11,442 bases of DNA. Source: Candidatus Omnitrophota bacterium. GTDB taxonomy: Bacteria; Omnitrophota; Koll11; Gygaellales; JAQTUY01. The position numbers and the translations under genes were made by a program. Of the stretch, positions 483 through 6,343 are shown piece by piece (within the stretch, counting starts at the first letter, position 1; every line of letters begins with the position of its first letter). Below the pieces are notes generated by a model. The model did not search any database. It was not told the origin of the DNA and was given only the letters and a program-made list of their open reading frames with translations. Location: positions 1 to 11,442 of the forward strand of contig JAQTUY010000042.1 of assembly GCA_028707105.1 (NCBI GenBank), in the 5' to 3' direction.

Positions 483-803
483 ATGAAGGAAATTAAATGG
501 AATCCGTTGAAAAGCGAACGGTTGAAACGTACACGCGGTGCTTCTTTTGAAGAGATAATCACGGCCAAGCTGGTTAGTGTTCAGGATCATTCACGCAAGG
601 AACATCAGAGAATATATCTTTTTGAGTATAAGAACTATATCTGGGTAGTCCCGTTTGTCGAAACTGAGAATGAGATTTTCTTAAAAACATTGTATCCTTG
701 CCGGAAGTATACCAAAGTTTACAAAAGAGGAGGAAATAAAAATGAGACGGATCAAGCTTACAAAGGAAGAGAGGGCGATCGAGGACGCCTTAGTCAGGGG
801 TGA
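483..803 (+). CDS. BrnT-like toxin of a type II toxin-antitoxin system
   Basis: A protein of 106 residues. The first 80 or so fit the BrnT/RelE-like fold pattern: an N-terminal 'KEIKWNPLKSERLKRTRGASFEEI' type segment, where BrnT proteins usually have W(D/N)xxKxxxNxxxHGVxFEE, then a QRIYLFEYKNY strand pair and a final KTLYPCRKYTKVYKR basic strand. BrnT proteins are ribosome-dependent or general ribonucleases that stop translation and are neutralised by a CopG/BrnA partner. The last 20 residues (742-803) overlap the antitoxin gene in another frame, are polar and look unstructured, so they are probably dispensable. Start chosen at ATG 483 because it lies 24 nt past the predicted transcription start; there is no good ribosome binding site. 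A looser assignment to another small RelE-superfamily toxin is possible. Confidence 0.7.
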   Translation: MKEIKWNPLKSERLKRTRGASFEEIITAKLVSVQDHSRKEHQRIYLFEYKNYIWVVPFVETENEIFLKTLYPCRKYTKVYKRGGNKNETDQAYKGREGDRGRLSQG

Positions 804-993
804 GTATATAAACATCAGCAAAAAAGAATTCGTGGAGATTGCGGCGGCGCTTGAAGCGCGTAAGAAAAATGCCGTCTTGAACATACGCGTAAACAGGCAT
901 GATTTGGATATTCTTAGGCATAAAGCGCAAAAAGCAGGGATCAAATATCAGACCTTTATTTCCGAGATCCTGCATAAAGTCGCGGAGGCGTAA
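742..993 (+). CDS. CopG/BrnA-family ribbon-helix-helix antitoxin
   Basis: A protein of 83 residues. The C-terminal half has the pattern of COG5304/CopG_antitoxin proteins: strand VLNIRVNRHDLDILRHKAQ, then KAGIKYQTFISEILHKVAE, i.e. a ribbon strand followed by two helices that dimerise and bind DNA. The N-terminal 40 residues are charged and would be the toxin-binding tail. A clear Shine-Dalgarno (AGGAGG near 727-733) precedes the ATG, so it should be translated better than the toxin, as expected for an antitoxin. Its first 62 bp lie inside the end of the toxin frame. The order toxin then antitoxin is that of brnTA modules. It probably represses its own promoter through the half-sites at 446-463. 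Confidence 0.82.
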   Translation: MRRIKLTKEERAIEDALVRGEYINISKKEFVEIAAALEARKKNAVLNIRVNRHDLDILRHKAQKAGIKYQTFISEILHKVAEA

Positions 994-5136: not shown

Positions 5137-5204
5137 CCTCTTGAAATTTAAGGCAATATAGGCTATACTTAAAAAGTGAAACGTTCGGTAATACTTTCAA
5201 GAGG
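5137..5204. repeat. 10-bp inverted repeat flanking the first PilZ promoter
   Basis: CCTCTTGAAA (5137-5146) and its exact complement TTTCAAGAGG (5195-5204) are 48 bp apart. The left arm contains the -35 box TTGAAA; the right arm lies about 20 nt inside the transcript. They could be paired sites for a dimeric regulator, or form a stem only in read-through RNA from the ACT genes. Confidence 0.5.
5141..5169 (+). promoter_or_regulatory. Sigma70-type promoter of the first PilZ leader
   Basis: TTGAAA (5141-5146), a 17-bp spacer and TATACT (5164-5169). Expected start near 5175-5177. It lies 18 bp past the second ACT gene and about 135 nt before the PilZ start codon, so the transcript has a long leader. 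Confidence 0.75.
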
Positions 5205-5285
5205 AGGGAAGCGCCCGGTGAGTACGGGCACAACAGCCACGGAAAGATTGCCGCGTGCAATCTTTTGAAGATCCGTGGTTTTTTT
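5176..5285 (+). promoter_or_regulatory. Structured leader of the first PilZ gene, candidate attenuator or riboswitch
   Basis: About 110 nt between the predicted transcription start and the end of a terminator, all before the PilZ start at 5310. Visible structure: a weak hairpin TGAAA/TTTCA (about 5177-5199), a stem GCCCG/CGGGC (5213-5217 with 5225-5229) with loop GTGAGTA, a linker ACAACA, then the GCCACGG hairpin that ends in seven T. A promoter followed by folded RNA, a terminator and then the gene is the standard layout of a transcription attenuator. I could not match it to the GEMM-I or GEMM-II c-di-GMP riboswitches or to other classes I know. A similar GCCACGG hairpin precedes the second PilZ gene. 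Confidence 0.6.
5237..5285 (+). terminator. Intrinsic terminator inside the first PilZ leader
   Basis: CCACGGA (5237-5243) pairs with TCCGTGG (5272-5278). Directly inside, AAGATTGC (5244-5251) pairs with GCAATCTT (5257-5264) around the loop CGCGT. Seven bases, TTGAAGA (5265-5271), bulge on the 3' side only. Seven T (5279-5285) follow. It stands 24 bp before the PilZ start codon, so full-length mRNA requires read-through or antitermination. Confidence 0.82.
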
Positions 5286-5309
5286 GTTTGATGAGGAGCG
5301 AGGAGCAAT

Positions 5310-5702
5310 ATGGAACGCAACTATTTAGCGGAGAACAGGCGTAAATCCGACCGGCTTAAGATAAATCTTGCGGCGTGGTATAAAGTGGTCGGTCCGGTTA
5401 ACCGCGGCAAGGAAACTGAAGTTGAAATGCTGGACTTGAGCCAGGGTGGAATGGCTTTTTTAACCCGGGATAATATTCCGGCCCGGAGCACGCTTTTGAT
5501 CAAGTTTGTTTTATTTAAAGTAGATAGAAAGGGTTTTCTTAAGCTGCACGGCCCGGTGAAGCTGGCCGGCGAGGTATGCTCCAGCAGGAGTTCTGCGAAT
5601 AATCAGCGCCGCCTGGGGGTAACGTTCAAGGAAGTATGCCTGGACGATAAGTTCCAGATCAGGGATTTCGTAGATTTTACCCGCAGCAAGATCAAGGGTT
5701 AG
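5310..5702 (+). CDS. PilZ domain protein, copy 1 (putative c-di-GMP receptor)
   Basis: A protein of 130 residues, essentially a lone PilZ domain. Both c-di-GMP motifs are intact: R11-x3-R15 (RKSDR) near the N-terminus and D42-x-S44-x-x-G47 (DLSQGG) at the start of the beta barrel. The barrel strands follow (STLLIKFVLFKV, VKLAGEVCS, RRLGVTFKEV), then a C-terminal helix. Lone PilZ proteins act as adaptors that bind a partner when c-di-GMP is present, often in pilus, flagellar or exopolysaccharide control. A double GGAG ribosome binding site (GAGGAGCGAGGAG) precedes the ATG. Expression is probably gated by the terminator at 5237-5285. The partner is unknown. Confidence 0.88.
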   Translation: MERNYLAENRRKSDRLKINLAAWYKVVGPVNRGKETEVEMLDLSQGGMAFLTRDNIPARSTLLIKFVLFKVDRKGFLKLHGPVKLAGEVCSSRSSANNQRRLGVTFKEVCLDDKFQIRDFVDFTRSKIKG

Positions 5703-5713
5703 TAAGCAGGCGG

Positions 5714-5789
5714 TAAACGATAGTTTAGTAAAGCCACGGAAATAAAAGGTGATCTTAGCGCTTTAACCTTTTGACCGTGGCTTTATGTT
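5714..5789 (+). promoter_or_regulatory. Hairpin element before the second PilZ gene, related to the first PilZ leader
   Basis: TAAAGCCACGG (5729-5739) pairs with CCGTGGCTTTA (5775-5785), an 11-bp stem; inside it AAAAGGT (5744-5750) pairs with ACCTTTT (5766-5772) around a 15-nt loop. A small hairpin TAAAC/GTTTA (5714-5718 with 5723-5727) precedes it. As in the first leader, the sequence reads GCCACGGAAA, then an inner stem of different sequence, then CTTTTGA, then CCGTGG. The T-rich stretch behind it (ATGTTTT) is weaker than a standard terminator. I see no strong promoter of its own, so it would act on read-through transcription from copy 1. Confidence 0.6.
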
Positions 5790-5809: not shown

Positions 5810-6208
5810 ATGTATAATCGGAGTTGGGGAGCGGACAGGCGCAGGTTCCAGCGTTTAAGCGTCAATCTTAGCGTAGCCTACGAGGTCTACAGCCCGGAGA
5901 ATATCCGCCAGATGCTCGGCGGCAAAGAAGTGGAAGCCACTGCTCTGGACCTGGGCGGAGGAGGAATGGCGGTCCTGACCAAGCATAATATCCCGATCTG
6001 GAGCACCCTTTTGATAAAATTCCTCTTTTTTAAGACCGATCCTAACGGGCTGGTGAGTTTTTCCGAGCCTGTAGATATAGTTGGAGAGGTCCGTTCTACG
6101 ATCGCCTACCCGCGTAATGAATACCGCCTCGGCATAGCCTTTAAGGGCATTGAAAACAGGCGCGAAAACCGGGTCGCGGATCTCGCGCACGCCCTGAGCC
6201 GGCCTTAA
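5810..6208 (+). CDS. PilZ domain protein, copy 2, with degenerate DxSxxG motif
   Basis: A protein of 132 residues, paralogous to copy 1 along its full length. Shared segments include the N-terminal RRxxxRL, GGGMAVLTKHNIP versus GGMAFLTRDNIP, the strand STLLIKFLFFKTD and the closing YRLGIAFKG. R11-x3-R15 (RRFQR) is present. The second motif reads D47-L-G49-G-G-G52, so the serine of DxSxxG is glycine. That serine contacts the ligand in structures of PilZ domains, so binding may be weaker or altered. AGGAGG ribosome binding site 7 nt before the ATG. It lies 107 bp after copy 1 and is preceded by a hairpin like that of the first leader. Confidence 0.85.
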   Translation: MYNRSWGADRRRFQRLSVNLSVAYEVYSPENIRQMLGGKEVEATALDLGGGGMAVLTKHNIPIWSTLLIKFLFFKTDPNGLVSFSEPVDIVGEVRSTIAYPRNEYRLGIAFKGIENRRENRVADLAHALSRP

Positions 6209-6227: not shown

Positions 6228-6257
6228 AAAACAAAAAACCCCCTGTTTCTCCAGGGG
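6228..6257 (-). terminator. Intrinsic terminator, mainly for the minus-strand RNA
   Basis: Read on the minus strand, CCCCTG (6257-6252) pairs with CAGGGG (6245-6240) around loop GAGAAA, followed by one G and then TTTTTT-G-TTTT (6238-6228). Read on the + strand the same stem is followed by TTTCTT, a weaker tail that may still end the PilZ transcript, so it can work in both directions. Confidence 0.75.
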
Positions 6258-6343
6258 TTTCTTGTAGGTGATAGGCCTGACTAGCTTCCGCTATCCGGTC
6301 TGCCTCCTGCTGCTGTTGGTGACCTCAACTCTTTCTAACGCCT
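6233..6343 (-). ncRNA. Putative small RNA gene of unknown family
   Basis: About 110 nt on the minus strand bounded by a good promoter (-35 TTGAAA, -10 TATCTT) and an intrinsic terminator with a strong U-tract. No protein frame of note lies inside. Possible structures in the RNA: GUUG/CAAC closing the loop AGGUCAC near the 5' end; a middle arm with AGGC/GCCU, GAC/GUC and UAGC/GCUA stems capped by a GGAA tetraloop; then the terminator hairpin. The middle contains CAGCAGCAGGAGGCAG, which could be an anti-Shine-Dalgarno-like or target-pairing region. The GGAA loop recalls 4.5S/SRP RNA, but the flanking asymmetric-loop bases do not fit that family. It is the only transcript predicted on the minus strand in this window. 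Confidence 0.55.

What the first reader, a model, noticed from the sequence alone, without database searches (positions are those of the whole stretch)
5141..5309. Promoter, folded leader and terminator before a PilZ gene: candidate riboswitch
A 110-nt leader with its own promoter ends in a textbook intrinsic terminator 24 bp before the start codon. Its product is a PilZ protein with intact c-di-GMP motifs, so a nucleotide signal, possibly c-di-GMP, is an attractive ligand. The sequence does not show the GEMM-I core (GGGCAAACC, GGGACGCAAAGCC) that I know.
Basis: partly seen in the sequence, partly recalled or inferred. Interest (0 to 1): 0.7.

Follow-up and report, generated by a model that had tools for sequence, protein, structure and literature searches.

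The report
Shared hairpin switch before PilZ genes
A short RNA hairpin with a fixed seven-letter arm sits at the start of genes for signal receptors and large exported proteins in a number of uncultured Omnitrophota bacteria, so these genes may be switched together by a regulator that is not yet known.

Summary
In detail: window 5141-5309 has a sigma70-type promoter, a leader of about 110 nt and a terminator-like hairpin 24 nt before a PilZ gene. A second hairpin with the same arm precedes the next PilZ gene. Neither matches Rfam.

Comparison extends the finding. The hairpin (GCCACGG, variable inner hairpin, CGTGG[C/T], T-run) recurs in Omnitrophota, usually just after a promoter and just before a gene. 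Of 64 downstream proteins 29 are PilZ, 4 have kinase/receiver domains, and others are exported proteins, including N-termini of very large ones. In 10 further genomes, 17 of 17 new copies precede genes, 9 of them PilZ; several are orthologues of training copies. Most PilZ genes lack the element.

The seventh base of the 5' arm is fixed even where unpaired. In four PilZ genes the likely start codon lies inside the 3' arm. Best reading: a regulated hairpin (terminator or start-masking) whose 5' arm is recognised by an unknown trans factor. NusG paralogues and CsrA are unlikely. A c-di-GMP aptamer is not supported, because the upper half is not conserved, but is not excluded. Regulation itself is inferred, not shown.

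The parts
5141..5169 (+). sigma70-type promoter TTGAAA-17-TATACT; start of transcription expected near 5176 (inferred)
5213..5229 (+). extra small hairpin of leader 1 (GCCCGGTGAGTACGGGC); not seen in the other copies
5236..5242 (+). GCCACGG, conserved 5' arm of element 1
5243..5265 (+). variable inner hairpin of element 1 (AAAGATTGC / GCAATCTTT)
5273..5285 (+). 3' arm CCGTGGT and run of seven T (terminator-like end)
5310..5702 (+). PilZ gene 1
5729..5785 (+). element 2 between the PilZ genes: GCCACGG 5733-5739, CCGTGGC 5775-5781, T-run broken; no good promoter of its own found upstream (7 of 12)
5810..6208 (+). PilZ gene 2

Best explanation
The leader is one copy of a recurring cis-regulatory hairpin that serves a shared set of genes in Omnitrophota (PilZ receptors, two-component proteins, large exported proteins). 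Left alone, GCCACGG pairs with CGUGGY and the hairpin stops transcription at the U-run or, in one PilZ subgroup, hides the ribosome site and start codon. A trans-acting factor, most likely an unidentified RNA-binding protein, less likely a small RNA, binds the GCCACGG strand, stops the hairpin forming and lets the genes be expressed. Shown: the recurring element, its position, the target bias, the fixed seventh base, and two kinds of placement relative to the start codon. Inferred: that it is regulated, the direction of control, and the factor.
For: Recurrence: 61 places in 46 of 384 genomes, 21 for the backward pattern; covariance model, 51 of 384 genomes at E <= 0.01, one genome with seven copies. 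Target bias: 29 of 64 downstream proteins are PilZ against 572 PilZ matches in 42 such genomes of about 75 Mb. Further genomes: 17 of 17 copies before genes, 9 of 17 PilZ. Chosen by protein only: 16 of the 26 PilZ upstream regions that have any hairpin with T-run carry this arm. Promoter in 55 of 64, about 9 expected. Base 7 of the arm, left free by the pattern, is G in 41 of 42 while its partner is C 17, T 13, G 7, A 5. Inner stretch folds better than 95% of shuffles in 54 of 71. Likely start codon inside the 3' arm in four PilZ genes.
Against: No expression or binding data. At least 82 of the 99 PilZ upstream regions read lack GCCACG. About a third of the pattern places may be chance (61 against 21), and some model hits look like ordinary terminators beside unrelated genes (L099, L173, L175, L176). 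Several copies are near-palindromes that the model also finds on the other strand (searches does not test this), so some could be two-way terminators. The fixed first six bases of the arm were part of my search pattern, so their conservation is not measured freely; one pair of near-identical copies has GCCGCGG. Element 2 of the window has a broken T-run. No trans factor was found; only NusG and CsrA were tested. At E <= 0.01 the model also hits 6 of 79 and 11 of 118 genomes of two other phyla.
Confidence: 0.45

Rival explanations
1. A riboswitch: the leader RNA binds a small molecule, possibly c-di-GMP, and the hairpin is its expression platform.
For: Targets are rich in c-di-GMP receptors. 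Two kinds of output, terminator and start masking, hang on one core. A more complex leader type with a GGAG-capped hairpin plus GCCACG and terminator precedes relatives of the same exported family.
Against: No Rfam match. In the simple type nothing above the lower stem is conserved, and the inner part can be as short as 5 nt.
Confidence: 0.2
2. An unregulated start-proximal terminator or 5' stabilising hairpin: it simply lowers or steadies expression, and the common arm is inherited.
For: In 10 of 64 copies the -10 box ends 7 or 8 nt before the hairpin, so the RNA would begin with it. The hairpin and T-run have the form of an ordinary terminator.
Against: Inner parts differ completely while the base letters recur. 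Base 7 is fixed where unpaired. The arm recurs before non-homologous genes.
Confidence: 0.25
3. A DNA operator: the inverted repeat GCCACG/CGTGGC is a binding site of a DNA-binding protein near the transcription start.
For: Two half sites in inverted orientation near the start in many copies.
Against: The distance between half sites varies from 5 to 56 nt, the distance from the -10 box from 4 to more than 80 nt. The T-run follows, although the pattern asked for it.
Confidence: 0.07

Closest known systems
c-di-GMP-I (GEMM) riboswitch
   Same: Leader control of genes of c-di-GMP signalling and surface functions (PMC7266159, passages)
   Different: No Rfam match to it; no conserved aptamer core in the simple hairpin
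Antitermination by proteins that bind the terminator's 5' side or an overlapping hairpin (BglG/LicT type, ANTAR type; recalled)
   Same: One strand of a terminator kept by sequence, targets shared across loci
   Different: No separate antiterminator hairpin of the recalled RAT or two-hexaloop ANTAR kind noticed; no such proteins searched for
LoaP / NusG-paralogue antitermination (search listing)
   Same: A leader hairpin as signal for long exported or biosynthetic genes (recalled)
   Different: 31 of 31 element-bearing genomes tested have one NusG match only
CsrA/RsmE sites (recalled)
   Same: GGA in a hairpin cap occurs in the complex leader type; start-codon masking
   Different: 0 of 31 element-bearing genomes tested have CsrA over the Pfam cut-off

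Membership tests
c-di-GMP-I / any Rfam riboswitch class | Score over the curated threshold of the covariance model | tested here: not met
   for the window; for the complex leaders
c-di-GMP-I / any Rfam riboswitch class | Ligand binding by the RNA | not testable with these tools
   needs in-line probing
Intrinsic terminator / transcription attenuator | GC-rich hairpin followed by a run of T, between promoter and gene | tested here: met
   element 2 of the window has only a broken T-run
Intrinsic terminator / transcription attenuator | Regulated read-through | not testable with these tools
   no expression data
NusG-paralogue (LoaP/RfaH) antitermination | A second NusG-type protein in the genome | tested here: not met
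   one match in each of 31 genomes with the element
CsrA regulation | CsrA in the genome | tested here: not met
   0 of 31 over the cut-off; one weak match below it in G343
BglG/LicT or ANTAR antitermination | The RNA-binding domain protein in the genome | not tested

The most novel reading that the evidence does not exclude
The simple GCCACGG hairpin and the complex leader (GGAG-capped hairpin, GCCACG, terminator) are two forms of one new RNA sensor class of Omnitrophota. It reads a second messenger, perhaps c-di-GMP, and sets the amounts of c-di-GMP receptors and of very large exported proteins through terminator or start-codon control.
Probability: 0.15. Interest if true: 0.85.

Novelty: new variant of a known kind. 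Interest (0 to 1): 0.6.

Why it matters
Omnitrophota have not been isolated, and a large survey discusses their pili and giant reading frames as possible means of attachment or predation (PMC10066038, start of abstract and passages). A common leader element would be a handle on how these bacteria coordinate c-di-GMP receptors with very large exported proteins. It can be tested outside the uncultured host, because in vitro transcription and a reporter in a laboratory strain need only the leader.

Tried and rejected
GEMM or another Rfam class: no match. A cobalamin-like core that I suspected in leader 1: not among the matches up to E 10. Leader peptide: the base before GCCACGG is A in 15, T in 21, C in 3 and G in 3 of 42 copies, so a start codon is not kept. 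NusG paralogue and CsrA as the factor: not supported. Spread over other phyla: only weak hits in the two tested. Phage origin: no similar DNA in 50,697 phage records. A first genome scan with an alignment of PilZ1 and PilZ2 relatives found nothing; the upstream ACT protein gave the loci. The L033 row was read on the wrong strand by my rule and was not used from there.

Rows dropped: of 61 pattern places 49 were fetched and 12 not read at that step. Of the 49, eight were left out before the model (seven inside reading frames, one without a gene); also left out were L099 (atypical arm, unrelated gene), one duplicate and the opposite-strand readings of palindromic copies. From 70 model hits, four without a readable gene and two near-duplicates were left out of the 64 proteins. 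For the promoter count six of 70 were left out (L099, L167, L170, L173, L175, L176). Eleven of 110 PilZ places were not fetched; one of 50 large-protein loci could not be read. In one search a script rule lost 4 of the 17 further copies; their arms were read by eye instead.

Full report
What is in the window. The window is Omnitrophota DNA by its relatives: the nearest PilZ protein (98% identity) is named so, and 17 of 32 loci found with the upstream ACT protein are titled Omnitrophota. No whole genome is held for it. Two PilZ genes follow two ACT-domain genes. Before PilZ1 lie a promoter (5141-5169), a leader of about 110 nt and a hairpin with seven T, 24 nt before the ATG. Between PilZ1 and PilZ2 lies a second hairpin (5729-5785) with no good promoter of its own and a broken T-run. 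The two hairpins share AGCCACGGAAA and AA[T/C]CTTTTGA. Rfam has no match.

The same hairpin elsewhere. PilZ relatives were sought in 384 Omnitrophota genomes; 73 have a match at E <= 1e-15. Of 34 upstream regions read by eye, 9 clearly show the design: promoter like TTGAAA..TATACTT, a few nt, GCCACGG, a changing inner hairpin, CCGTGGC or similar, T-run, then the gene. A pattern fixing GCCACG, CGTGGY and TTTT found 61 places in 46 of 384 genomes; the pattern read backwards found 21. Of the 61, 49 were fetched; seven lie inside reading frames and one has no gene. A covariance model from 42 copies matched 51 of 384 genomes at E <= 0.01, one of them (G219) seven times. At the same limit it matched 6 of 79 genomes of the phylum of an Endomicrobium and 11 of 118 of the phylum of a deltaproteobacterium, so weak matches are partly background. 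At E <= 0.001 these two give 0 of 79 and 1 of 118, and the order of G219 gives 28 of 128; 18 of those 28 genomes belong to the 384 from which the model was made.

Controls against my own selection. First, PilZ genes were taken by protein alone: 99 of 110 upstream regions were read with a hairpin finder that asks for no particular letters; 26 had a hairpin with T-run and 16 of these had the GCCACGG arm. So most PilZ genes lack the element. Second, 10 genomes outside the 384 gave 17 new copies; all 17 lie before a gene on the same strand, and 9 of the 17 genes are PilZ over the Pfam cut-off. Several are orthologues of training copies, so this is a partial hold-out. Third, promoters: 55 of 64 elements have at least 10 of 12 matches within 120 nt, about 9 expected from shuffled upstream DNA; the scoring allowed TTGAAA and TATACT, chosen after seeing copies, but equally for the shuffles.

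What the genes are. Of 64 downstream proteins 29 match PilZ at E <= 1e-3, and 4 each match receiver, HisKA and HATPase domains; in the one shown singly (L123) all three are in one protein. Four PilZ genes in the set had been read from wrong starts or frames; read from GTG all four are PilZ; I did not see how many of them are among the 29. PilZ is otherwise found 572 times in 42 such genomes of about 75 Mb, below 1% of genes if one gene per kb is assumed. The PilZ proteins fall into visibly different groups by eye (DRRRFQRL, RYFPRWEV, IFARFPVEF, ERRxFRRI, RRRFxRW). Another target is an exported family with a conserved N-terminus that begins reading frames of up to 5601 aa and has up to 22 copies per genome; the members tested have no Pfam, NCBIfam or convincing PDB match. 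Single cases are MscL, an outer-membrane barrel and a beta-helix protein. Signal peptides were judged by eye only.

Which letters are fixed. In the 42 training copies base 7 was left free by the pattern, yet it is G in 41, while the opposite base is C 17, T 13, G 7, A 5. In the 17 further copies, found with the model, base 7 is G in all, opposite C 9, A 6, G 1, T 1 (read). In 62 copies the 3' arm is CGTGGC 31, CGTGGT 24, TGTGGC 4, TGTGGT 3, changes that keep G-C or G-U pairs, while the 5' arm stays; here the pattern fixed the first six bases of the 5' arm, and one pair of near-identical copies has GCCGCGG. The inner stretch is 5 to 56 nt (67 copies) and in 54 of 71 cases folds better than 95% of its shuffles. 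So the base of the hairpin is held by letters and the top only by folding, and at least base 7 of the 5' strand is held beyond what pairing needs.

Two kinds of placement. In most copies read, the gene starts after the T-run, so the hairpin can act as a terminator. In L101, L102, L104 and L164 the reading frame can start at GTG inside the 3' arm, with GGAGG (GAGG in L102) inside the hairpin; the T-run then codes for phenylalanine (MAFFI..). For these, masking of the start is the natural reading. L101, L102 and L104 also have other in-frame start codons further upstream, so this start is likely, not proven. In 10 of 64 elements the -10 box ends 7 or 8 nt before GCCACGG, so the RNA should begin with it.

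How it probably works. One strand carries the fixed letters, two kinds of output hang on it, and the targets form a set. The account I favour is a trans factor that recognises GCCACGG while single-stranded and keeps the hairpin from forming. NusG paralogues are unlikely (one NusG match in 31 of 31 genomes with the element; 4 of 31 without it have two), as is CsrA (0 of 31 over the cut-off; 6 of 31 genomes without the element have it). A small RNA, another RNA-binding protein or a ligand remain. A c-di-GMP aptamer in the simple hairpin is unlikely because nothing in its upper half is conserved. All of this is inference from sequence.

A related, more complex leader. Among 49 upstream regions of the exported family, taken by protein, 7 have the simple hairpin (five GCCACG, two GCCGCG) and 14 carry a hairpin capped by GGAG, then GCCACG, then a terminator, 13 of the 14 with a visible promoter by eye. 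Eight folded examples have z from -3.2 to -5.9. In an automatic scan 10 of 11 GGAG-capped hairpins followed by a T-run had GCCACG within 110 nt; many of the 14 are homologous to each other. No Rfam family fits. One PilZ leader (G152, L201) has a GGAG-containing hairpin ahead of its GCCACGG hairpin. This links the two types but does not prove one class. Leader 1 of the window has an extra hairpin (5213-5229) and the letters GGAGG upstream, but not the capped hairpin.

Literature. In the held open-licence library no paper pairs Omnitrophota or Omnitrophica with riboswitch, or Omnitrophota with c-di-GMP. A survey of Omnitrophota has no occurrence of PilZ, riboswitch or c-di-GMP in its main text (passages). 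A search for PilZ-linked RNA motifs (listing of 16) showed no title on such an element.

Verdict. The reading as a regulatory leader is supported and extended to a recurring element of Omnitrophota. The c-di-GMP riboswitch reading is not supported for the element in the window; a sensor role of the wider family stays open.

Noticed in passing
window 6240-6340, minus strand: A conserved stretch (GGATAGCGGAAGCTA..AGGCCTATCACCTAC) ending in an intrinsic terminator, with look-alikes in L002, L057 and L318 and a more distant one in L280; no Rfam match. Candidate small RNA or other structured RNA.
   Followed up: partly
L266, L268, L270, L271, L276, L283, L285, L296, L298, L299, L301, L303, L304, L305: Leaders of a large exported protein family with a GGAG-capped hairpin, GCCACG and a terminator; no Rfam match. 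Possible new structured leader class.
   Followed up: partly
G142:C4, G263 and other genomes: An exported family with a conserved N-terminus starts reading frames of up to 5601 aa and occurs up to 22 times per genome; members tested have no Pfam match.
   Followed up: partly
upstream of the exported family, e.g. L273, L274, L280: Imperfect palindromes like GAAAGCGCTTTC before the promoters, resembling recalled LacI-type operators.
   Followed up: no
L103 (G134): Same element, but the frame from GTG in the 3' arm ends after MAFFI, unlike its four relatives; decay, assembly error or a short leader peptide.
   Followed up: no
window 5137-5146 and 5195-5204: A perfect 10-nt inverted repeat (CCTCTTGAAA / TTTCAAGAGG) flanks the start region and overlaps the -35 box; possible operator.
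   Followed up: no
window 483-993: Two overlapping small genes with weak similarity to a BrnT/BrnA or CopG toxin-antitoxin pair, mostly below or near the Pfam cut-offs.
   Followed up: no
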